Part shown: positions 10,679 through 34,345 of the stretch, in pieces
Numbering within the stretch: the first letter of the stretch is position 1
How the letters are laid out: each line of letters starts with the position of its first letter
Assembly (NCBI GenBank): GCA_905250025.1
Contig: CAJNOJ010000004.1
Location: forward strand, 620,001-684,000
Direction: 5' to 3'
Length of the DNA: 64,000 nucleotides
Source: Adineta ricciae
Taxonomy: Eukaryota; Rotifera; Eurotatoria; Adinetida; Adinetidae
Notes under the pieces: model-generated
What the model was told of the DNA's origin: nothing
What the model saw: the letters and a program-made list of their open reading frames with translations, nothing else
Database searches by the model: none
Position numbers and translations under genes: made by a program

Positions 10679-12841
10679 TTACCAACGATAAAATTGCTTG
10701 ATGGGTTCTTGATCGACATCCATATCACAACCAGGAGTCCATTTGGAAAGTTTTGTTAGATTTTTGAAGCCAATCTGTGCTGCTGGACTGTTTAATTGAA
10801 CAGTAAAAAAGTCACATTGGTTAACATCGCCAGTAAACAATGGATCGGCAATGAGACTGTTGTTTTCTTGCCCGGTTTTTTGCCAATCTGTAAATGATAC
10901 TTGTTGTTTTCCGAACAGTAATGTTGTATTATATGGATTGTAGTAAAGATTACTATTGAAAAAGGCAATTGCACCTTGGTCAGATTTATAAGCTGAATGA
11001 TTTCCATTTAGAAATGTATCATAAACGATATTATGTTGAAATGTGAATGATGTATGGTTTTCGGTAAGTCCAATATGAATATCACCATCGGTGCTTGGGT
11101 CGCCAGGATGTGGCGGTGGACTGAGTGAAGCACGTGCAAAGACATTGTTGATAATTGTATTATTAGCACCATAATGTTGAAAAAGTGAAGCCCAACCAGT
11201 GTTATAGACAACATTGTTCGAAACAACGATGTCAGATGTACCTTCATCCAGATAAATGCCCCACATATACATGGCATAGCTAAACACATTCTTAATTACA
11301 TTTCCATGAATGATTGTACCGGGTTGAATACCAAGTGTGTAGATACCACCTTGGTCACAAAGAATATGTTGTCCGATGTTATAGATATAATTACCTTGGA
11401 CTAGAACATTACTGGTATACGATGATGCATAACCCCATTGCCATCCGACTGATATACCGGTGTATCGATGGTGATGAATTAAATTGTCAACAATGGTAAC
11501 ATCGGTTGCTCGATGGCTAATAATTCCTACACCACTGGGGAAAACATTTCCACCGTAACTGACTTCATTCGATAAGATTTGAACAGATGTTGTTGGTGTC
11601 GGTACTGGTGCTATCATTTGTCCAATTCGAATACCACCAGCACCAGTATCAGTTACTAACGAATTGAGTAGATTAATATTACTCGTACCTTCTTTAATCC
11701 ATACTCCATATGAACCCGTATGACTGATTTCTATGTTGGACATGATAATAGATGTTGCATTAGCGATGAACAATGCAGCATAGGTGAGAAAAGAAGCTGC
11801 TTGTGCATCAGCTTGCTGTGTACGATCAATATTCCATGCACTATATTGGATAGCAATATTATCGATGATAACATCTTCGATGGAATTGATTGTATCGTCG
11901 CCAACAAGAGACATCACAGTTTCATTTATCGGTGCGATAATTTCCGATTGATTTGGATCGTATGAACCGTCTGTGGCCAAATAGACAGTTTTTGTTGCGC
12001 TGATAAAACAAAATGTATTTGGAGATGGTGATATACACATATTTTCGACATGAAATCGTCGTTGACCTTGAGCAACCATTGCTCCAATCGGACGGTCGGA
12101 TGGATTTGTAAAGAGAATCGTTCTATTCGCATCAAGTTTATCAATATAATGATGCGAGGTTGTCCAACTATGATAGACAACAACCATGGCATCCGTCAAC
12201 GGCCAAGAGGAATTGAATTGTCCGTCAGCATAATGAAAACCAAATCGTGCTTGATTCGGATCAGATAATGGTGCGTCATACTGCAGATACGTTGATGGAT
12301 CGACAGGAGTACGTGTACGAGGAATACGTTGATTATTAACAAATAACTGATTAATAAACGCCGATGTGGTAACCGTAGCCTGATAGACATTATTACCTAT
12401 GGACGTCCAACCAGTAACTGGTATTCCACCACTAATACTCGCTTTTGACAATAAACGATGTGGATGATTTGGAGAGAGATATTTTCGGTAATAAACAGTA
12501 TCTTTAATATTCATTGTTGTTAATCGGGTGTGACTGTGGATTTTTCGGAAATGAACAGGTGCAGCGTGATAATACGTTGGATACAGATAAATCGTTGTCT
12601 TTTGTGGTGATGAAGCATCTCTGCAATTATAATCATGTTCAATGTGATCGAGTGCTTGTTGAAGTGTCGCATAAGGTCGTGTAAATGAGCCATCCGCGTC
12701 AGAACCGAACAAAGATGGAAATGGAACAACATACAATTCAGTGAAGAAAGTCTTTGTGATGTCCGATGAGCTGCTGTATTCTATATTAATAAATACGATT
12801 GCAAAAAGTACCAGTATGTGTTGAAACATGTTGGTTCCCAT
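10679..12841 (-). CDS. Secreted right-handed parallel beta-helix protein (pectate-lyase-like fold)
   Basis: A single exon encodes 720 residues. A signal peptide (FQHILVLFAIVFINI) is followed by GSDADGSFTRPYATLQQAL, typical of bacterial extracellular beta-helix proteins. From about residue 320 the chain shows repeated short strands (VIIDNIAI, IIMSNIEI, VTIVDNLI, VLVQGNYI, IIHGNVI, IVVSNNVV, TIINNVF), the ladder pattern of a right-handed parallel beta-helix. Such proteins act on polysaccharides as lyases or hydrolases; the substrate cannot be told from sequence. There are many Asn glycosylation sites. With no intron in 2.16 kb and a domain plan familiar from bacteria, it is a candidate for horizontal acquisition (inference). 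Confidence 0.82.
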   Translation of the reverse strand: MGTNMFQHILVLFAIVFINIEYSSSSDITKTFFTELYVVPFPSLFGSDADGSFTRPYATLQQALDHIEHDYNCRDASSPQKTTIYLYPTYYHAAPVHFRKIHSHTRLTTMNIKDTVYYRKYLSPNHPHRLLSKASISGGIPVTGWTSIGNNVYQATVTTSAFINQLFVNNQRIPRTRTPVDPSTYLQYDAPLSDPNQARFGFHYADGQFNSSWPLTDAMVVVYHSWTTSHHYIDKLDANRTILFTNPSDRPIGAMVAQGQRRFHVENMCISPSPNTFCFISATKTVYLATDGSYDPNQSEIIAPINETVMSLVGDDTINSIEDVIIDNIAIQYSAWNIDRTQQADAQAASFLTYAALFIANATSIIMSNIEISHTGSYGVWIKEGTSNINLLNSLVTDTGAGGIRIGQMIAPVPTPTTSVQILSNEVSYGGNVFPSGVGIISHRATDVTIVDNLIHHHRYTGISVGWQWGYASSYTSNVLVQGNYIYNIGQHILCDQGGIYTLGIQPGTIIHGNVIKNVFSYAMYMWGIYLDEGTSDIVVSNNVVYNTGWASLFQHYGANNTIINNVFARASLSPPPHPGDPSTDGDIHIGLTENHTSFTFQHNIVYDTFLNGNHSAYKSDQGAIAFFNSNLYYNPYNTTLLFGKQQVSFTDWQKTGQENNSLIADPLFTGDVNQCDFFTVQLNSPAAQIGFKNLTKLSKWTPGCDMDVDQEPIKQFYRW

Positions 12842-13394
12842 CGAAGAATATCTCTATCTATTTCTTATGATTTTACACAGATTGATAAACTATTTCAGGA
12901 TATAAATAGATGTTGAGAAAAAATGTATATCATCCCATCTGGTTACACGCGTTTTATTCACATCACACCCTCGATAACACTACTATTTTTATTCCTATCT
13001 ATTTATGATTCGATTGCTTTCATATGAGCAAGCAGAAGTTGACATCGAAAAGCTTTGAAATTGTTGAACTATAAATCGATCGTTATCTCACCTTTTATTG
13101 GTGTTATTATCTGTCATTGCACATGACAAAAAAATTTACAAGATTACCTTTCAACGTCAAGCAAAAGCGAAAGGATGTCACAATGCTCGGAAGGTTTGTT
13201 ATTGTTGTTGTTTTTGGTATTCACATTATTTATACATATATCGATACACGTACCTCAACAAACGTTCTCGGACTACTAATATATGCGTGAAATAATCAGT
13301 TCAACATTGGAATTGTTTGTTATAAAAAAAATTGTCTTTATTCTAGCAAATGAGTTTGAACAATGTATAAAAAAAACAGATATATAAAAAAAAC
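12842..13394. other. Intergenic region
   Basis: About 550 AT-rich bases between the start of the beta-helix gene and the 3' end of the nicotinic receptor gene. No coding signal or repeat seen; a 65-codon plus-strand frame (13098-13295) looks like chance. Confidence 0.4.
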
Positions 13395-19250: not shown

Positions 19251-19631
19251 GGAGATTTAATAATTATAAATAACCATTATCATCACCATTGTCATCTTTT
19301 GATAACGCTAGTCTGTGTTCATTCGACATTATTATTGGTTAAAGAAGAATAGATAATATTCGAGAAATTCAGTATTTGGTATAATATTTCTACATCGAAG
19401 TACGCAGTCTCTTCATTTCATATAGATAAGAATTAGATAACATCAGGTGGAGAGAAACATGACAACATCGAATCAATTTCGAAACGTTTTACTGCATCTA
19501 TGAGACACTTCAGATGCACGTTGTCTTGAATTCAAATTTAGTGAAGTATAAGAAATACAGGTGTACTTCAAATGAGCTTGTTAACTAATCGTTAATAATT
19601 TTACTTCTAAAACAAATCAGATCAACGATCG

Positions 19632-20318
19632 TTATAGTTCTTTCTCGATCATTTCCATCTTCGATTCATGATAAACTTGTAGTTTCTCTTCTTGTTCTCT
19701 TTGTAATTGATGAATTTGTGTTCGAAGTGAATAATGTCATTGATACAGAACCTTTACTTGAAAACACAATGCACATGATGCAATCACAAAATTTACAAAT
19801 GGTAAATATTTCTGAACATTGTGACTAGGGGTGTCAGCATTCCCCGTTCCCAAGCGTTCCATTCCTGGGAACGGAACGCATTTTAAACTGTATTATATGA
19901 GATTTTTTTGAACATAGTTAAGTTGCTGACATACAATTATTTACATATTAAGCGAAATGATTACCCGTTCCCGGAACGGAGAATGGGGAACGTGTGCTGG
20001 CGTTCCCATTTCCAGAACGGGGAACGCGATTTGTATTCCCCATTCTTGGAATATGGGAACGCAACAGTGAGACTCCGGAATCTTAAGTATTATCTAATTT
20101 TAGATCGATGCTTGCGTTCCCGTTCCTGAACGGGGAACGCCACTGAATCTTTGGCTGTTTTTACAAGTATAAGTCGCATTTCATTCTTCTGGTGGCTAAT
20201 AAACAACCGGAAGAGGTATATTTTGCAGCGTTCCCCGTTCCTAGAATGGGAACGCAGACTCCGTTCCCGTTCTTTGGAACGGAACGCAAAAGTGACACCC
20301 CTAATTGTGACTCATCAT
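19632..20318 (-). pseudogene. Dead copy of the 73-residue membrane protein gene, split by a hAT element
   Basis: On the minus strand the first codons (ATG ATG AGT CAC AAT) lie at 20318-20304. Then the hAT-type element interrupts, and the rest of the frame continues from 19825 down to TAA at 19634-19632. Compared with the intact copy at 33002-33223, a Trp codon has become TGA at 19739-19737 and 18 bases near the 3' end are deleted in frame. The copy therefore cannot make the protein. Confidence 0.75.
19826..20303. mobile_element. Non-autonomous hAT-type transposon (MITE), 478 bp
   Basis: The ends are TAGGGGTGTCA and TGACACCCCTA, an 11-base perfect terminal inverted repeat of hAT style. The flanks are an exact 8-base duplication, ATTGTGAC, at 19818-19825 and 20304-20311; hAT transposases make 8-base duplications. 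The interior is built of many GGAACGGGAACG/CGTTCCCGTTCC-type motifs in both orientations and has no transposase frame. The empty site is visible in the paralogous copy near 33205-33220, where ATTGTAACTCATC is continuous. Confidence 0.9.
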
Positions 20319-20943
20319 TTTCGTCAAATTCTTTCACAACACATGAGCTTATATTATAGCAAAGAGATTGTATGTTTCTTTTTTTCTTTTCAATTATAAA
20401 TCAAGATTACCTTTGGCATATTTACTCGCATATTCATAAAAATGAATAGAAACACTGGATTGAATGAAATCATGAATAAATCATTCGATATGAAAGATAT
20501 TTATGTACATCTCATGTTGTGTATGTGTACAACGTCGAGTGTATCGTGTTATTTTCGCAAATAAGTGTTGATAAAAGCGAGTATTTGTCAGCCTGGTATT
20601 TTTGAGTATTATCGATAAGAGTGAGAATCATTCAAACCGTTTTCTAATCAGAACAACAAGCGTGAGCAATTGATCGAATGCAAACTTCCAAGGATGCAAT
20701 CATTTTGATGTTATTCTTTGAGAAAGACTTATCGAAGCGGTTAAGAAAAGTATTGTTAATGTTCTTCACCTGTAGTTTTGACACACTTTCGATTACGGTA
20801 GTAATTAAAGTGAAAACAAAGTAAAGTAATGTTGTTTGCCATCTGGAATGAGTAACGATGTGCTGTAAATGTGTTGACTTTGTTTGTGATAGAAAAGCCA
20901 CGTCGAATTCTCATTGCATCATTCTGTGTTGTCATGAAGTGAT

Positions 20944-20953
20944 TATATAAATA
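20944..20953 (+). promoter_or_regulatory. TATA-box-like site of the 903-residue fusion gene
   Basis: TATATAAATA lies 25-34 bases before the ATG at 20978. The position suits a core promoter with a very short leader. Function is inferred from sequence and spacing only. Confidence 0.4.
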
Positions 20954-20977
20954 AAGATTTCTTTTATAGAGTTAATC

Positions 20978-23689
20978 ATGTCTACGGGAAAAGATTTTTC
21001 TGTGTATAAATGGTATGCTGATTTGATCGACGAACAAACCGATAATGTTACGATTATTTATCTGGGCGAACTGCAATGGAAGTTTGTTAAACTTCGTTTT
21101 ACTAATATTTTACAATTTCTTCAAAAAGTCACCTTGATATCTCATGCCACATTTTCCAACTATCAGCCACCGATCTTCGACGAAAACTCATTCATTATCA
21201 ACTCAACAAATCTATCTGGTCGATGGTCAACAACATCTGCATGTATTCGAGAGAAATTGTATGAAAATGCCAACGGATATATTGTTTGGGAATGTCTGAT
21301 GCCAAGTGCATCTGGAAAGATTGAACTCGACGGTACAACTAATCAAGGTTTAGGTTATGTTGAACGATTAACAACGACTCTGAAACCTTGGCAAATGCCA
21401 ATCAACATCTTGCGATGGGGACGATTTTTGTCCAACAATCATTCGATTGTCTGGATTCGTTGGGAAGGAGAAGAAGAGAAGTTTCTTATTTTTCACAATG
21501 GATTGAAATATGTAGGTGGAATTATCGACGATGATCGGATTGAATTCGGCACATATCGTCTGATGTTAGAAGATAAATTTACTCTACGAAATGGACCATT
21601 GGTGAAAACAGTCTTTGATAAATTTAGTACAATTAAACAACTGTTTCCGGCTGGATTTTTGAACATGAAAGAATGTAAATGGCAAACACGAAGTGAGTTA
21701 TTTGAAAATACTCGTTGTATTAGCAAAGGATGGTCTATTCATGAAAATGTTCAATTTCAACCCAAACTACCAGTGTTAGGAAAGATATTCTATGGTTCAT
21801 TGTTTACAATAGTCATTCCTCTGTTACTTAGCATTTGGGCAAAACAAACCGAACATTATATTCATTTACCTATTCTAACAAATCCATTTGTTGGAACTAC
21901 ATTTATTTGTCTCGGATTCGTTTTGATGATAACAGCCATGTCAGATTTATGGTTCAAAGGTCATGGATTACCTATGAATGCTTATCCACCACCTAAATTA
22001 GTTACCAATGGCGTGTACAAGCTCTTTTCGCACCCGATATATATTGGAAGTTCGTTGACATGTTTTGGCCTGTCGATAACTTGTCAGTCGAAAAGTGGCT
22101 TTTGGTTGGTATCACCTATATTGACATTGGCATGGCTTGCATTGGTGCATGGTTATGAAAATGAAGACTTACAAAAACGATTTCCGGATGTGGTATGGAA
22201 AAGATTAGTAGATTTACCAGAGAATGTTAACATGAAAAGTCAATTCAATGATATTGTATCAGCCTACTGTTTAGTTCTAATTCCTTGGCTAGTTCTCTAT
22301 CAACTTGTCATATTTGTTGGTCCTTCGGCTAACTGTATTTCGACCTATCTTCAATTCGAATCGAACATTCCAGTTATTGAATGGACAGAGTTCTTCTATC
22401 TTCTCGCATATCCTTTTGTCGCTTTGGTGCCATTGGTTTTGCAAACAAAACAACAAATTCGTTCGTTTATTATTGACGGCTTGTTAAATATCAGTATTGG
22501 TATATATTTGCAATTTATTTTACCGTTCGTAGCGGTTCCGAAAGCATTTGTTCCACAAACATTCTTAGGTGAAATTCTATTGCATGAGCGCGATTTAGAT
22601 GGACCTACTGGTGCCTTTCCATCGTTTCATGTCTCTTGGGCATTTCTCTGTGCTCATCATTACACACGAGCTTTTCCGAAACATCGGTCTGCGTTCTACA
22701 TTTTATCTGCTCTCATATCAGCAAGTTGTGTGACGACAGGGATGCATAGCATAATAGATGTTATCGCTGGATATCTATTATTCCTGATTTGTATCAAAAG
22801 ACAACAAATTTGGCAATATCTTCGACGTTATTTTGAAAATCTAGCAAATTCCTGGGCAGCATATCGTATTGGACCACTGCGTATCATTAATAACAGTTTG
22901 TATGTGTTCTTAAGTGCAGCATCAGGTGCTTATTTAGTTTGCTCATTACCCGGTAACAATTATGCCATGTTATTCGTTAGTATATCTTCATTATTTGGTG
23001 GAGCTGTATGTGGACAATTACTTGAAAGTTCTTCTGGTCTATCTCGGCCATTTGGTTACTTTGGTTTTGTTACTGGTGGTCTAGTTGGATCTATTGCTGC
23101 ATCATGGTTATTTCACATTCCAATTCTTTCATTTTTATCAGCATCTGCCCTGGCAAATCCCTGGATACAAGCGACTGGTCGCCTACGTTGTGTTGCTCAA
23201 GGATGTTGCCATGGTCGTCGAACAAATCCATTTCTTGGAATCTTGGTTACCAATCCTCACTCTCGAGTATGCTCACTATCACAATTGCACAACAAACATA
23301 TTCATATCACACCTGCTTATTCGATATTAGCAAACGCTCTGATTGGAATGCTTCTGTGGCGACTATGGTATTCAGAAGTTTCTCTATGTTTGATAATTAG
23401 TCTTTATTTTATTTTGATTGGATTGAGTCGATTCGTCGAAGAACGCTTTCGAGGTGAAGTTCAAACGATGATTTGTCGTCGATTAAAAATCTATCAATGG
23501 GGATCGATCGCATTTGTCTGCATAGGCATCTGTTTCAGTATGCTTCCATTCAATGACAAAGTTTCTTTGCACTTGAATGGAAAGTACGAATATGTAATTC
23601 CATCGATAATATTTGGATGTATCACAGCATCTGCAATGGGTGTAGACTTTCCCGAATCTACAAAGAGATTTTCGCGTCTTGCTGATTGA
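20978..23689 (+). CDS. Four-part membrane lipid enzyme: CrtC-like, ICMT-like, PAP2 and Lgt-like domains
   Basis: A single exon encodes 903 residues. Residues 1-250 are soluble, beta-rich and tryptophan-rich, loosely recalling carotenoid hydratase (CrtC)-like proteins (low certainty). Residues about 265-415 are membrane segments with GHGLPMNAYPPPKLVTNGVY and SHPIYIG, the pattern of isoprenylcysteine/phospholipid methyltransferases. Residues about 460-610 hold a PAP2-type phosphatase with GAFPSFH (C2) and TGMHSIIDV (C3); the first lysine/arginine motif is not clear. Residues about 640-860 resemble bacterial prolipoprotein diacylglyceryl transferase: GRLRCVAQGCCHGRRT and LIGLSRFVEERFRGE. All parts suggest lipid chemistry in a membrane. 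The bacterial-type domains and lack of introns suggest horizontal origin. An AATAAA lies about 40 bases after the stop. The overall reaction is unknown. Confidence 0.8.
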   Translation: MSTGKDFSVYKWYADLIDEQTDNVTIIYLGELQWKFVKLRFTNILQFLQKVTLISHATFSNYQPPIFDENSFIINSTNLSGRWSTTSACIREKLYENANGYIVWECLMPSASGKIELDGTTNQGLGYVERLTTTLKPWQMPINILRWGRFLSNNHSIVWIRWEGEEEKFLIFHNGLKYVGGIIDDDRIEFGTYRLMLEDKFTLRNGPLVKTVFDKFSTIKQLFPAGFLNMKECKWQTRSELFENTRCISKGWSIHENVQFQPKLPVLGKIFYGSLFTIVIPLLLSIWAKQTEHYIHLPILTNPFVGTTFICLGFVLMITAMSDLWFKGHGLPMNAYPPPKLVTNGVYKLFSHPIYIGSSLTCFGLSITCQSKSGFWLVSPILTLAWLALVHGYENEDLQKRFPDVVWKRLVDLPENVNMKSQFNDIVSAYCLVLIPWLVLYQLVIFVGPSANCISTYLQFESNIPVIEWTEFFYLLAYPFVALVPLVLQTKQQIRSFIIDGLLNISIGIYLQFILPFVAVPKAFVPQTFLGEILLHERDLDGPTGAFPSFHVSWAFLCAHHYTRAFPKHRSAFYILSALISASCVTTGMHSIIDVIAGYLLFLICIKRQQIWQYLRRYFENLANSWAAYRIGPLRIINNSLYVFLSAASGAYLVCSLPGNNYAMLFVSISSLFGGAVCGQLLESSSGLSRPFGYFGFVTGGLVGSIAASWLFHIPILSFLSASALANPWIQATGRLRCVAQGCCHGRRTNPFLGILVTNPHSRVCSLSQLHNKHIHITPAYSILANALIGMLLWRLWYSEVSLCLIISLYFILIGLSRFVEERFRGEVQTMICRRLKIYQWGSIAFVCIGICFSMLPFNDKVSLHLNGKYEYVIPSIIFGCITASAMGVDFPESTKRFSRLAD

Positions 23690-24066
23690 TTTTACTGTGC
23701 AAGCAATCTTTTTTCTATTTTCACTTTAAGAAATAAACACAGCATATAAGCAAACTCTTTTCTTAGAATAGTTCCACTAACGAGAGTATGTCAACTGATA
23801 TTGACTAAGACGCACGAAAACAAGGCCAAAACCTTCAAGGCACCCATCATTGCTTTCAAACTATGTACGCGCTGATTTCGAAGAGAATTTCGAAACGTCT
23901 TCCCACATCTGTAAAATATTTGCTGTCCGCATTAATCTATACGAATAAGACACTAGCCCCCTCATGCGAGATGTCTATTCCAATTGATTTAAATCTTCAG
24001 CCAATACTACTTCACTTGAGAAATTACTCTTCTCTCATTGCGAAAATCTGCATCACCAACAGTTTA

Positions 24067-25815: not shown

Positions 25816-28800
25816 CTAACACATTTTGGAAATAAAGCCAATGTTACTTTCTCCAGCTAAAGCTATCATCAGATCTTCCATGCCATCGTTGTTCAAATCT
25901 GCATATGCAACTGCATAGGGTAGCGATTGGTATCCAGTTGCAAAACTTCTCACATTTGTGAAGACACCGTTTTGATAATCTTGGAGAAGATAGACCTGAT
26001 TTCTACCATGATCAGTGATAACGACACTTAATTGATTGTTTTCATTAAGATCAACATGCGTGATCGATGAGGGACGGGAGCCGACGTCGAGATGAAATGT
26101 GCTGGGATTAGCGAAAGTTCCATTGTTCTCACCGAGAAAAATGAGAATTGCTTCATTTACATAGTTCGCGACAAGAATATCTAACCAAGAATCGCCGTTG
26201 AGATCTATAAGAGCAACTGAAACTGGAGAACTGTTATTTCCAGTTGCGAGTATCATCTGATTCGTAAATAATCCATTACCATAGCCGAAAAAGATGCCGA
26301 TATTTTCCGCATTTGAATTACCTACAACAAGATCCATTCGATCATCGTGATTCAAATCTCCAACAGCTATCGACTGTGGGACTGATTGATTTCCAGTAGA
26401 GACTGTTGTTTGAATTAGAAATGGTTCGCAGCAGTAAGCAAGAAATATTCCAATATTTGAAGTAGCATAATTGGCAACAACGATATCGTTCTCATCGTCA
26501 CCGTTGAAATCTCCGATCGCTAAGGACAAGGGACTTGATTGTGCTCCTGTTGTGTACATCGTTTGTAGACCAAATGTGCCATCGTTATTTCCGTAATAAA
26601 TACGTAATGTATCGTCTCCCGATCCGGTTGTTACGATATCTAAGAAGAAATCATTGTTAAAATCGTTCACTGCAATCGACGATGGCTTATCGATTAACTG
26701 AATAGAATACTTGATTTGGTTAGCGAATGATCCATTTTGAGTAGCGAGTAAAACTCCAACTTGATTATTCATCAGATTGATAATTAAAATATCGATCCAT
26801 CGATCGCTATTGAAATCACCCAGTGTGATCAAGCTCGGTGTGGTATTGAATCCAGTAGAATAAATCTTCTGTCGGAGAAAGCTTCCGTTTTGACTCGAGA
26901 AAAATATTGTTATACTACTTGCATTATAGTTCGTTACTGCGATATCTAAATAGGTATCGTTATTGAAATCGAATTTAGCCAATGCACTTGGACTGGTCGC
27001 AATTCCAGTTGAATAAGTCGTTGCGTTTGTGAACGTACCATTTCCTTTACTAAAATATATATTAATACTATTCGAAGTACTGATTGCCAAGACGATATCT
27101 GATAGATTATCGTGATTAAAATCACCGGTGACGATTGCCGACGGATAGGAACTATTACTATTGAAATAGATAGCAGTATTTTCAAAACTTCCGTTGCATG
27201 AGCCGAGAAAGATTGAAAACAGGCTTTGATAGATGTTCACGGTGACAAGATCTAAACATTGATCATGATTAAAATACCCGCTCGCAATTAGCTGCGATTC
27301 ACGAAACGAAATCGTCGAAAAGGTCGACGGTGAAGCGAACGTGCCATTACCATAACCGAGAAAGATACTTCCGGTCGCTTGTCCATCTGTACTACTAACA
27401 ACATCCAGATGATTGTCATTATTAAAGTCACCGACGATGACATAAATCGGATGAGAACGAAGATCAATGGCATAAGTAACTTGGGCTAACAATGATGTGT
27501 ACTGATAACCAAGAAAGATACTGATATTATTTGCGCCTGAATTGGATACAACTAAGTCGATCCATTCATCGTTGTTTATATTCGCGGTGACAACTGATAT
27601 CGGCCGAGAATTCGTTCCCGTTGAATACGTTGCTTTGAGAGTGAAGGTTCCATTTTCAGACCCGTAGAAAATACTGATTGAATTTGCACCGAAATCAGTC
27701 GTTACGATGTCTAGATAGCTATCACGATTGAAATCACCTAGAGCAAGGTCAGTTGGCAGAGATCCCGAGCCCGTTGAATAGGTCATTTCAGTCGAAAAAC
27801 TTCCATTGTCATGTCCAAATCGAATCTCTAGTTCTTCCGTGCCGTAATCCATAATAGCTAAATCATATCGATTATCATGATTGAAGTCGCCAACAGCAAG
27901 TGAAAGTGGTTGGGATGCCGAACCGGTCGTATAAACACTCGGATTTTGTAATGCGCCATAGTCGTATCCAAGAAAAATAGCGACGTAGTCACTTAGAGAA
28001 TAGGTAACCAGAAGATCGAGACGATTATCGCGATTGACATTGCTGATAGTCAATGCCGATGGACCGGAATTATTTCCAGTCGAGTAGTTTATTTGATCAT
28101 CGAAGGTTCCATTTGGAAATCCGAGAAAAATACCCAGATTATTATTTCGGCCATTTGCAACTACAATATCCACTATATCGTCATTATTCAGATCGCCTAT
28201 TGACACTGAGTAGGGCGCTGAATACAAATCATTCTGATACATAACTTCACGATCGAAATTCGTACTAAATTTCCCATAAAAAATCACAATATTATTACTT
28301 AAGCTATACGCTATGATTAGATCAAGTTGTTGATCACGATCAATGTCAGCGATAGCAATTGATGTTGCACTTAAACCATACTTCGACGTATAAATCGTTC
28401 CATTTCGAAATATCCCATTTCCCTCGTTGAAGAATATGCTAAAATTACTGGCGAATGAATCCACCACAACAATATCGACGTATCGATCGTTATTCATGTC
28501 AGCAATGCCGATCACATCAGGATTTGTTATGCTTGTGGTTACATATTCAGTTTGATTGCTGAAACTTCCATTGCAGTAGCCGAGAAATACTCCAATATTT
28601 TGGAGATTATACTTTCCAACGACGAAATCAATACAACTATCATTATTAAAGTCACCGATATCAACATAGGTTGGTGTAGATCCACTTTCAACAGATATAG
28701 TTTGTAACGACGAAAGTTCTCCGCTACCATCTCCAAAGAAAATGCCAATCGTATCGCTTTTCGAGAGAGTAACGATGATATCTAACCGTTGATCATTGTT

Positions 28801-30737
28801 GAAATCAGTGATTTGCAAACACGAAGGTGTGGAATTTGAACCTGTGGAATAGGTTGTTTGATTCGAGAATGTTCCATTGCCTGAACCGAAGAAAATACCA
28901 ATATTATCTGCTTGGTTATTTCCAACAATGATATCTGTTTGATTATCATTGTTCAAATCACCGGTAGCAATCGATTTTGGATTTGAAAAATCTCCTGTGA
29001 AATAACTATTCGTATTTTTGAAAACGCCCGGATCGTATCCAAGATAGACACCTATACTATTCGTAGCGTAATTCGTTACAAGAATATCTAAGCGATTGTC
29101 ATTATTGATATCACGAGTAGCAATCGATGAAGGATTTGTTCCAAAGCCATTCCAATAGATTAGACGATTTGTATATGCAAAACTCTGATCTCCAAGTAGG
29201 ATTATTATTCGACTATTCGAATAATCCGTGATAGCTATGTCTAACTTCGTATCTTTATTGAAATCAGCGACGATTATCTGTGATTGATCGTAAATGTTAG
29301 TTGAAACATTCTTTCGATGTTCGAAAGTGCCCTGGCCGTTGCCAAACAACAAGAGAAGATTTCCAGTACCTGAATTTGATACAATAATATCTAATGCATT
29401 GTCTCCGTCGAGATCTCCAACAGCGAATGAACAAGGACTCGACTGGAAACCAGTTGAATACATTTTTTGTGCAGTAAACGATTGATTTTGTTGATTGAGG
29501 AACACCCCGATGCTGTTTGCTCCATTATTAAGTACAATCATATCCAGATAAGTATCGCGATTGAAATCGACGAGAATGGTTGAGTATGGAATCGAATCAT
29601 AACCAGTAAAATAGGTTGTCAGAAAAGAAAAGTTTCCATTGCCTTTTCCTAGAAATAGATCAAGACAATTCGTAGCGTGATTGACAACAACTAGATCTAA
29701 ATTGTTATCGTTATTCAAGTCACCAACGCTGATGGATAATGGTTGCGAGATACCGGTAGACAAGATCGACTCCATATGAAAATTTCCACTACCATCGCCT
29801 ATGAGAATACCGACTTGATGGGTGCCGAAATTTGCTGCAGCAATATCTAATCGATTGTCGTTATTAAAATCGCCGATGGCAATAGAATATGGTTGAGAAT
29901 TCGAACCAGTTGAGTAAGTCTTTTGTCTTCGTAAAATTCCAGTACCAGTGCCTAAACTAATGCCGACATTATGTGTATTCGAATTGGCTACAGCAACATC
30001 TAAGAATGTGTCGTTATTAAAATCGGCTATCGCAATCGATTGGGGACGAGAATGTTGTTTATCAAAATCTATAGCCATAGATTTAAACTTCAGTGTACAT
30101 GGCACATCTAAACATATGATTATTCATTCGCACTGGTAACAATTTCTTTACCTTTCTTTCTCGCCGAAACTAAACATATTAGGACGATACTAACGGTACT
30201 TGCCATGATTGCAAATAGAATAAACATGAAATATCCAAAGTAAGAAAGTAGTCCTGACTGATGAAATCGTCTCCTAAACATAAACATATCATCAAACTTA
30301 CAGATCAAATAAAGAACCTTCGGCTAACCGAAGTTTGATTCCGATATGTTTATTTTTGAAATTATGATGCACAACTTCGATCAGTTCATTTTCTGGTAAA
30401 GTCAGATTAGGTAATCGCGACATCGTCTTTCGTAAACCCAACGGAGTTCTTTCTAGTCCATGTCGATCTTCGGAATTCGACAGTGTATTCATTTGCATTT
30501 CATCTCCAATCACTGCTATATCCTTTTGAACAAACAAGAACAACTCGTTCAAATATTATCATTTATCAACTTACACTTGCCACAGGCATCACTCGTTCTC
30601 GATTGATTAAATGATCTTTTCTTCAACTGTAACGATATACCCTTGCTATCTTGTTTTAACTGAATAATCACATATCGCACTCGAAGACGTGTTATTTTTT
30701 TTTCCTTTCTTCTTGCGTTATTTTGTATTATTCTCAT
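25816..30737 (-). CDS. Giant FG-GAP/VCBS-repeat type II membrane protein
   Basis: Exons 30737-30575, 30515-30302, 30273-30152 and 30107-25816 encode 1596 residues in one frame. Introns are 59, 28 and 44 bases. The first 130 residues are basic and polar (cytoplasmic). One strong membrane segment lies at about 134-161 (YFGYFMFILFAIMASTVSIV). All the rest is about thirty tandem units of roughly 46 residues. Each has a calcium-loop consensus such as DFNNDNRLDI (DxNxDxxxD), a strand ending in IGIFLG, GNGTF, then YSTGxxSxPxSIAxGD. These are FG-GAP/VCBS repeats, as in integrin alpha propellers and many bacterial surface proteins. The repeats form several seven-bladed propellers in principle. Likely an extracellular adhesion or binding protein; partner unknown. 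Confidence 0.88.
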
Positions 30738-32964: not shown

Positions 32965-33001
32965 ACTGTTTTATTCCTGAAACAAATAAGATCAACGATC
33001 G

Positions 33002-33223
33002 TTATAGTTCTTTTTCGATCATTTCTTGCAGATTCTTTATCATTTCCATCTTCGATTCATGATAAACTTGTAGTTTCTCTTCTTGTTCTCTTTGTAATTG
33101 ATGAAATTGTGTTCGAAGTGAATAATGCCATGGATATAGAACCTTTACTTGAAAACACAATGCACATGATGCAATCACAAAATTTACAAAAGGTAAATAT
33201 TTCTGAACATTGTAACTCATCAT
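33002..33223 (-). CDS. Small single-pass membrane protein with coiled-coil tail (unknown)
   Basis: 73 residues. An N-terminal hydrophobic segment (YLPFVNFVIASCALCFQV) is followed by LYPWHYSLRT and a Gln/Glu/Lys-rich helix likely to form a coiled coil, ending EKEL. I do not recognise the family; size and layout resemble small mitochondrial or ER membrane proteins. The frame is intact here, while the paralogous copy at 19632-20318 has a stop, a deletion and a transposon. Preservation in only one of the two copies weakly supports a real gene. It is transcribed away from the large gene of the duplicated block. Confidence 0.5.
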   Translation of the reverse strand: MMSYNVQKYLPFVNFVIASCALCFQVKVLYPWHYSLRTQFHQLQREQEEKLQVYHESKMEMIKNLQEMIEKEL

Positions 33224-33818
33224 TCGTCAAATTCGTTCTGATTACATCAAATGGCGGGTTTGATAATTCTTTCATAACACATGCTAGCATATCAGTACAG
33301 AGGGATTGTCTATTTCTTTTCTCGTTTCAACTCTAAAACGAGGATGCATCGTGTTATTTGTGTAAATGATTGCAGACAGAAGCAAATATTTGTCAGATTG
33401 TCAGTTTTGAGTACCATCTATGAGAGAGAGAGAGAGAGTACCTCAGCAAATGCAAATATTCGAGAACACAATCTTTTTGATGTTATTTTGTGAGAAAGAC
33501 TTATCGGAGTAGTTGAGAAAACGATTGTTGGCGTTCTTCATCTTAGCTTTCACTGTAATAGTAATTAAACTGAAAACGAAGTTAAGTAATGTTGCTTGGC
33601 ATATGGAATGAGTAATCGTGTGCTAAATATGTGCCAACTTGTGTTTGATAGAACGTCGCATAGAATTCTCATTGCATTATTTTTGTCGTGGGAGCGATAT
33701 TTTCTAGTTCCCATTCCTCAAATGTAAACAGAATTTGGGAAATAAGTTGCTCTCCCAATCCATAGGATGTTAATATGTAAGCGTATCTTTCTTTTGCTTC
33801 TTTTATGTAAAGTCACTG

Positions 33819-34185
33819 ATGATTACGGCAAGCGATTTTTTGTCAAAAAATGATATGCTGATTTGATCGACGGACAAACAGCTGACGTTACGATTTTCTA
33901 TGTGAATGAACTTCAATGGAAGTTTGTTACATTTCGTTTCACTAATCTTTAACGAAAAGTCATTCGCCATCAACTCAACCAACATATTCATAGCAAACTG
34001 ATTAGAATGAGTCGGTTCGTCGAAGAACGCTTTCGGGGTGAAGTTCAAACGATGATTTGTCATCGATTGTGTTTAGTTACATAGGCACTTGTTTCAGTAT
34101 GCTTCTATTCATTGACAGAGTTCCTTTGAACTTGGATGGAAAGTGTGAATATTTAATTCTATCGGTAACATTTGGAAGATGAAGG
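33819..34185 (+). pseudogene. Remnant of the 903-residue fusion gene (large internal deletion)
   Basis: The first about 130 bases match the start of the gene at 20978 (TATGCTGATTTGATCGACG, GGAAGTTTGTTA), but the Trp codon near residue 12 is TGA and further shifts follow. The sequence then jumps to the 3' part. ATGAGTCGGTTCGTCGAAGA and CGCTTTCGGGGTGAAGTTC match the region of copy 1 that encodes LSRFVEERFRGEV, near 23425-23465. Roughly 2.2 kb between these points is gone, so no functional protein can result. Confidence 0.8.
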
Positions 34186-34345
34186 TGGAGAGAATCCGTT
34201 TTTAGTTCAACTTAAAAAAATCACAACGCCATACAAGCATATCTGATCAATGTCCGTGATCAGACTAATATTCATTAATAGGTACGAAAACAAAGTCAAA
34301 ATCTTCAAGGTGTTTATCGTTGTTTGAAAAGTACATACGTGTCAG

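What the first reader, a model, noticed from the sequence alone, without database searches (positions are those of the whole stretch)
20978..23689. Intronless fusion of ICMT-like, PAP2 and Lgt-like membrane enzymes in an animal genome
Motifs seen in one uninterrupted 903-residue frame: GHGLPMNAYPPPKL and SHPIYIG (ICMT/PEMT type), GAFPSFH with TGMHSIIDV (PAP2 type), and GRLRCVAQGCCHGRRT with LSRFVEERFRGE (prolipoprotein diacylglyceryl transferase type). Lgt is a bacterial enzyme of lipoprotein maturation; animals have no such pathway. A chain joining methyl transfer, phosphate removal and Lgt-type chemistry suggests a self-contained route for modifying a membrane lipid or lipid-linked molecule. 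The N-terminal 250-residue soluble part, loosely CrtC-like, may present a substrate. Acquisition from bacteria and the reaction itself are inference.
Basis: partly seen in the sequence, partly recalled or inferred. Interest (0 to 1): 0.88.

Follow-up and report, generated by a model that had tools for sequence, protein, structure and literature searches.

The report
Bacterial lipid-enzyme operon fused in rotifer
A bdelloid rotifer, a tiny animal, carries as one intact gene what bacteria keep as two neighbouring genes for a membrane-lipid enzyme of unknown product, so a bacterial operon was captured, fused and kept in an animal lineage.

Summary
The 903-residue frame is real and intact. Residues from about 266 on (methyltransferase, Aur1/PAP2 and Lgt-like domains) are no animal invention: they match a ~640-residue protein scattered over about a dozen bacterial phyla. 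Residues 1-262 match a separate bacterial protein whose gene lies upstream on the same strand in 77 of 80 bacterial loci. Both halves place the fused proteins as one clade beside Hymenobacter and Bernardetiaceae: one operon, moved once, then fused. The fused form is in Adineta, Rotaria and unnamed records. The window keeps 91 of 93 and 31 of 33 residues conserved in bacteria. AlphaFold models (pLDDT 92.9) match the AttH/CrtC fold, Aur1 and Lgt. The Lgt part keeps the phosphatidylglycerol-binding arginines but lacks several residues needed in E. coli Lgt, and no lipoprotein signal peptidase was found in the assembly: it very probably does not make lipoproteins. I propose a multi-step membrane-lipid modifying enzyme; its product is unknown. 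A decayed duplicate lies 10 kb downstream.

The parts
20978..23689 (+). Uninterrupted gene for the 903-aa fusion protein
   Evidence: whole-length orthologues
20978..21763 (+). N-domain, residues 1-262, AttH/CrtC-type all-beta fold; a separate upstream gene in bacteria
21887..22183 (+). PEMT/ICMT-type methyltransferase domain (Pfam match, residues 304-402); HPIY 352-355
22379..22795 (+). PAP2_3/Aur1-type domain (Pfam match, residues 468-606)
22619..22759 (+). Aur1-type catalytic set: PSFH 548-551, H590, D594
   Evidence: catalytic role recalled from the family
22835..23560 (+). Lgt-like domain, residues 620-861 by structure (Pfam 700-854)
23177..23215 (+). Altered Lgt signature, residues 734-746 (GRLRCVAQGCCHG)
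23429..23458 (+). RFVEERFRGE, residues 818-827, with the equivalents of Lgt R239, E243, R246
32969..34310 (+). Decayed, internally deleted duplicate of the gene and its 5' flank (source copy 19599-23840)

Best explanation
Shown by sequence: an ancestor of the Adineta and Rotaria lineages holds as one gene what bacteria keep as a two-gene operon; both halves are nearest to Hymenobacter and Bernardetiaceae, so the operon was most likely taken up once and its two frames joined. The gene became host-like in composition and kept nearly all residues conserved in bacteria. Inferred: the protein is a multi-step enzyme for a membrane lipid. The N-domain begins with a beta strand at residue 7 (no room for a signal peptide; no predictor was run), so it should sit in the cytosol, where it binds, hydrates or eliminates from a hydrophobic substrate. 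The PEMT/ICMT-type domain methylates a lipid with SAM. The Aur1-type domain moves or removes a phospho-head group. The Lgt-like domain binds phosphatidylglycerol by its two arginines and transfers or cleaves the diacylglyceryl part on an acceptor that is not a lipoprotein. The fusion keeps the two partners together without an operon.
For: End-to-end homologues in named bdelloids; bacterial three-domain relatives; upstream N-domain gene on the same strand in 77 of 80 loci, 75 within 150 nt; the same neighbours in the trees of both halves; 21 proteins returned for the N-domain among candidates of about 500-1580 aa, all of the rotifer-type clade; conserved residues kept; confident models with matches to the AttH family, Aur1 and Lgt; one LGT match and no signal peptidase II match in the own assembly; further LGT genes in 8 of 8 bacterial genomes tried; UbiA prenyltransferase genes just upstream in 6 acidobacterial loci.
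Against: No biochemical, expression or lipid data; substrate, product and order of steps are guesses. The UbiA link is one group of Acidobacteriota, and those proteins reach no NCBIfam cut-off. Of the 22 rotifer-type rows, 13 are unnamed, so a bacterium with the fused gene is not excluded. The search missed P0099, which does have the N-domain fused, so it is not exhaustive. No DNA of other rotifers was held, so dN/dS was not tested. A decayed duplicate shows that a copy can be lost.
Confidence: 0.65

Rival explanations
1. The protein acts on sphingolipids: the N-domain presents a ceramide-like lipid, as yeast Svf1 is thought to, and the Aur1-type domain puts a phospho-head group on it.
Against: The operon also occurs in Acidobacteriota, Neisseria and others not known to me as sphingolipid makers; Svf1 itself was not compared here; the Lgt and methyltransferase parts stay unexplained.
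Confidence: 0.2
2. The protein acts on an isoprenoid lipid: the N-domain works like CrtC, kievitone hydratase or 25-phosphosteroid lyase on an isoprenoid, and the membrane part methylates it, handles its phosphate and joins it to a diacylglyceryl group.
For: The fold relatives of the N-domain include 25-phosphosteroid lyase, kievitone hydratase and Diels-Alderases; UbiA neighbour in 6 loci; PEMT/ICMT-type domain.
Against: A fold shows no function; UbiA was the only frequent isoprenoid-type neighbour, 6 of 91 neighbours scanned, with 25 of 139 families shown.
Confidence: 0.25
3. It is a true lipoprotein diacylglyceryl transferase used on rotifer proteins.
Against: G145, N146, H103, Y235 replaced, and E151 too (the two papers disagree on whether E151 is essential); no signal peptidase II match in the assembly; 45.5 bits against a cut-off of 334 for the NCBIfam Lgt model; 8 of 8 bacterial genomes tried have another LGT gene.
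Confidence: 0.04
4. Bacterial contamination or a non-functional relic.
For: Bacterial relatives; a decayed duplicate nearby.
Against: Animal-type contig and host-like codon use, orthologues under several bdelloid names, conserved residues kept.
Confidence: 0.01

Closest known systems
Bacterial PEMT-PAP2_3-LGT three-domain protein with its upstream gene (no description found; e.g. Hymenobacter, Chitinophaga, Neisseria wadsworthii loci)
   Same: Domain order, up to 53% identity, same gene order
   Different: Two genes in bacteria, one in rotifers
Lgt (PF01790; E. coli 5azb)
   Same: Fold, Arg pair that binds phosphatidylglycerol, equivalents of E243 and R246
   Different: G145R, N146C, E151C, H103F, Y235I by alignment; conserved C738, C743, C744, H745; fused to two other enzymes
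Aur1 / sphingomyelin synthase-related protein (PF14378)
   Same: Fold of about residues 410-608, His/His/Asp set
   Different: 13-16% identity in the structural alignment; other partner domains
AttH/CrtC superfamily (Fsa2, CghA, 25-phosphosteroid lyase, kievitone hydratase, 2ich)
   Different: 6-12% identity; shorter (about 262 against 320-381 aa); no Pfam match
crtIBY of thraustochytrids (PMC10016063; start of the abstract seen in a search listing)
   Same: Transferred biosynthetic genes found as a fusion in a eukaryote
   Different: Carotenoid enzymes, protist host

Membership tests
Lgt, prolipoprotein diacylglyceryl transferase | Pfam LGT profile over cut-off and Lgt fold | tested here: met
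Lgt, prolipoprotein diacylglyceryl transferase | R143, G154 and R239 | tested here: met
   R735, G746, R818 by the alignment; conserved
Lgt, prolipoprotein diacylglyceryl transferase | H103, N146, G145, Y235 (needed in E. coli Lgt by the passages) | tested here: not met
   F695, C738, R737, I814 by the alignment; PMC13251419 notes that H103 and N146 vary in distant homologues
Lgt, prolipoprotein diacylglyceryl transferase | Y26 | not tested
   outside the part aligned
Lgt, prolipoprotein diacylglyceryl transferase | Works with signal peptidase II in the same organism | tested here: not met
   PF01252: no match in the own assembly; 10 of 14 control genomes ring
Lgt, prolipoprotein diacylglyceryl transferase | Transfers diacylglyceryl to a lipobox cysteine | not testable with these tools
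   needs biochemistry
PAP2_3 / Aur1 type | Profile over cut-off and fold | tested here: met
PAP2_3 / Aur1 type | His, His, Asp catalytic set | tested here: met
   H551, H590, D594 conserved in at least 95% of 53 bacterial rows and kept; role recalled
Classical PAP2 phosphatase | SR-x5-H-x3-D motif (recalled) and PF01569 cut-off | tested here: not met
   S583-C584 instead of SR; 26.5 vs 27.2 bits
PEMT / ICMT-type methyltransferase | PF04191 over cut-off; HPxY and a later Glu (recalled as typical) | tested here: met
   (40.2 vs 25 bits); H352-Y355 and E394 kept
ICMT proper | PF04140 over cut-off | tested here: not met
   13.8 vs 24 bits
AttH/CrtC superfamily (N-domain) | Fold over the whole domain | tested here: met
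AttH/CrtC superfamily (N-domain) | Match to a Pfam model of the superfamily | tested here: not met
   84 members scanned at E 0.1: six weak single matches, none to an AttH or CrtC model
Horizontally acquired gene in an animal | Nearest kin bacterial, placed on an animal contig | tested here: met

The most novel reading that the evidence does not exclude
A whole undescribed bacterial lipid pathway (carrier or hydratase, methyltransferase, phospho-head-group transferase and Lgt-type transferase) runs in one animal polypeptide and gives bdelloid rotifers a membrane lipid that other animals lack, possibly tied to surviving drying.
Probability: 0.25. Interest if true: 0.85.

Novelty: new variant of a known kind. 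Interest (0 to 1): 0.57.

Why it matters
Bdelloids are known for foreign genes; here both genes of a conserved bacterial operon are present and joined, which keeps a two-part system together without polycistronic expression. The fusion also works as a Rosetta stone for an undescribed two-gene lipid system in many bacterial phyla: it says that the AttH/CrtC-type protein and the membrane enzyme act together. It is a clean target: express one gene and read the lipids.

Tried and rejected
Contamination: rejected. A fusion made in animals from three separate genes: rejected, bacteria already have the three-domain chain. Fusion in bacteria before transfer: no read-through frame in the 77 loci. In 291 genomes drawn from the order of the Hymenobacter genome, 27 have some match, 5 of them to the three-domain part (4 over nearly its whole length in frames of 661-694 aa, 1 partial); in those 4 a separate N-domain match lies on the same strand, in one about 1.4 kb upstream, and two of the N-domain stretches and one enzyme stretch contain stops within the matched range, not looked into. 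One distant 854-aa protein (P0099), placed among bacterial rows, has the N-domain fused but a shortened PAP2 part; it is not near the rotifer-type clade.

Genomic context for function: beyond the N-domain gene no neighbour is widely shared. Of 106 neighbours listed, 91 were scanned; the most frequent family was UbiA with 6, then AAA_21 and response regulators with 4 each, and 25 of 139 families were shown. The six UbiA genes are all in Acidobacteriota; their best NCBIfam models are prenyltransferases and geranylgeranylglycerol-phosphate geranylgeranyltransferases, none over its cut-off.

Solved structures by sequence: none with the single sequence; profile gave Lgt 1.1e-5 and Aur1 0.012 and 0.019; the N-domain profile gave none at E 1. 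Solved ICMT structures are not in the fold lists shown, which decides nothing. A viral scan with one bacterial protein gave nothing.

Papers: none held has diacylglyceryl transferase, isoprenylcysteine and PAP2 together, nor three of the four terms; diacylglyceryl transferase with rotifer gave one paper on another superfamily (passages). Searches (listings only) brought nothing on this gene. Two bdelloid gene-transfer papers do not have the word diacylglyceryl in their main text (find only). Supplements were not searched.

Counting notes: query proteins that carry part of the enzyme gave false overlaps; one search repeats the count without P0123, P0128 and queries over 291 aa. Two of the 77 matches are weak (E about 4e-4; L017, L059, little upstream sequence held). 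Two pairs of loci come from the same genome (L045/L049, L075/L078). The trees use 64 of the 80 loci (16 dropped for lack of one called frame for either half), two protein pairs joined only because their contigs have the same length (P0023/P0125, P0036/P0129), P0099 and 18 rotifer-type rows; they are of the quick kind, and many rows have unlike letter make-up. One search leaves out P0119. One rotifer-type row there, P0022 (722 aa), was not returned by the N-domain search and may be a fragment. In one search one of the 33 N-domain columns is misplaced (it lies at residue 467).

Full report
Observation. The window holds an uninterrupted 903-codon frame at 20978-23689 on the + strand. Pfam finds PEMT (304-402), PAP2_3 (468-606) and LGT (700-854), all over their curated cut-offs, and nothing in residues 1-270. 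The frame is not foreign in composition: GC3 is 0.289 against 0.268-0.359 in nine other long ORFs of the window, and its relative codon usage correlates 0.90 with theirs pooled. Other ORFs of the window match BIR plus RING, ankyrin repeats, Kelch and a rhodopsin-type receptor. The assembly that holds the window has 130 Mb in 1033 contigs.

Relatives. A search with the whole protein (340 proteins at E up to 0.001 among the 7998 candidates scored, best 120 listed) returned 19 proteins of 903-940 aa covering 99-100% of the query (P0002-P0020), named Adineta vaga, Rotaria sp. Silwood1, R. sordida and R. socialis or unnamed, two partly covering ones named Adineta steineri (877 and 722 aa), and then proteins mostly of about 640 aa at 39-53% identity that begin near residue 266 (alignment). 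P0001, the existing model of the window's own protein, has 796 aa and starts at residue 108. Scanning the genome collection for the bacterial form gave 212 relatives among 257 candidate stretches, of which the best 80 loci were kept. Their titles and ranks cover Bacteroidota, Ignavibacteriota, Acidobacteriota, Zixibacteriota, GN15, Calditrichota, Gemmatimonadota, Planctomycetota, Verrucomicrobiota, Myxococcota (Minicystis, Polyangiaceae), Pseudomonadota (including Neisseria) and Neomarinimicrobiota. The family is patchy: of 291 genomes drawn from the order of the Hymenobacter genome, 4 have it over nearly the whole length and 1 in part.

The N-terminal part. A search with residues 1-273 found 92 proteins, nearly all stand-alone and of about 240-290 aa, several on contigs of the same length as one of the three-domain proteins. 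In the 80 loci, an N-domain match lies upstream on the same strand in 77, with at most 150 nt between the matches in 75. The three without are L069, whose match begins 75 nt from the contig end, L042 and L057. None of the 77 reads through in one frame. A search for the N-domain among proteins of about 500-1580 aa returned 21 proteins, all of the rotifer-type clade or the window's own; it missed P0099, so it is not exhaustive. In the rotifer-type proteins the two parts meet within a few residues around 262-268.

Origin. Trees of the enzyme part (119 rows; 85 rows) and of the N-domain (85 rows) each hold the rotifer-type proteins as one clade (support 100, 100, 99), in a supported set with the P0023/P0125 pair, Bernardetiaceae and Hymenobacter (order Cytophagales, recalled). 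Two halves with the same neighbours point to one transfer of the operon followed by fusion. Of the 22 rotifer-type rows, 9 are the window or named bdelloids and 13 are unnamed, so the host of the deepest rows is inferred.

State. Of positions conserved in at least 95% of the bacterial rows used (53 enzyme rows, 34 N-domain rows), the window keeps 91 of 93 and 31 of 33. A second, decayed copy lies at 33798-34310: parts of residues 4-50 and 810-881 with stops and frame changes, the middle missing. Stretches before it (from 32969) and behind it also match the flanks of the gene (19599-20923 and 23794-23840) at 75-88%, so it is a segmental duplicate. The search of the assembly showed no further copy.

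Lgt chemistry. By the alignment and the motif positions, E. coli G142, R143, G154, R239, E243 and R246 correspond to G734, R735, G746, R818, E822 and R825, while G145, N146, E151, H103 and Y235 are R737, C738, C743, F695 and I814. Passages of PMC4728403 and PMC13251419 give R143 and R239 as phosphatidylglycerol-binding and H103, N146, G145 and Y235 as needed for function; they disagree on E151; and PMC13251419 says that distant Lgt proteins can carry H103Y/W/F and N146C. Thus lipid binding is likely kept and lipoprotein modification is unlikely. The own assembly has one LGT match, this gene, and none for signal peptidase II. In the 8 bacterial genomes tried (of the 80 loci), all 8 have at least one more LGT match, and in 7 of 8 it is the stronger one (E between 3.8e-78 and 5e-49).

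Mechanism. Inference: a membrane-lipid modifying enzyme that hands a hydrophobic substrate from the cytosolic N-domain to a methyltransferase and to two lipid transferases whose sites, by analogy with Aur1 (recalled) and Lgt (periplasmic), open to the other face. The kind of substrate is open: UbiA prenyltransferase genes directly upstream in 6 acidobacterial loci and the N-domain relatives favour an isoprenoid; Aur1 and the ceramide binder Svf1 favour a ceramide-like lipid.

Verdict. The finding is real. Its novelty lies in the capture and fusion of a whole bacterial operon in an animal lineage and in the exposure of a bacterial two-gene lipid system for which my searches found no description (main texts of the library held only), not in a domain combination made by animals.

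Noticed in passing
window 32969-34310: Decayed, internally deleted segmental duplicate of the gene and its 5' flank, about 10 kb downstream.
   Followed up: yes
window 25816-30123 (-): 1435-residue uninterrupted frame of FG-GAP repeats (26 PF13517 stretches), next but one to the gene; possibly another foreign gene.
   Followed up: no
window 10679-12853 (-): 724-residue uninterrupted frame with a right-handed beta-helix match; origin not tested.
   Followed up: no
window 20978-21298: The existing gene model of this locus (P0001, 796 aa) starts at residue 108 and so loses part of the N-domain.
   Followed up: yes
P0099 (854 aa, unnamed, among bacterial rows): An apparently independent fusion of N-domain and enzyme, with the PSFH part of the PAP2 domain missing.
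   Followed up: partly
L026, L034, L036, L039, L041, L061: UbiA-type prenyltransferase gene directly upstream of the N-domain gene in Acidobacteriota.
   Followed up: partly
L057 (Hymenobacter montanus), L042: Enzyme gene without a recognisable N-domain gene next to it.
   Followed up: no
L090 (Minicystis rosea): A separate Lgt-like protein with a GRxGC...GCCYG form of the signature, so the cysteine-type signature is wider than this family.
   Followed up: no
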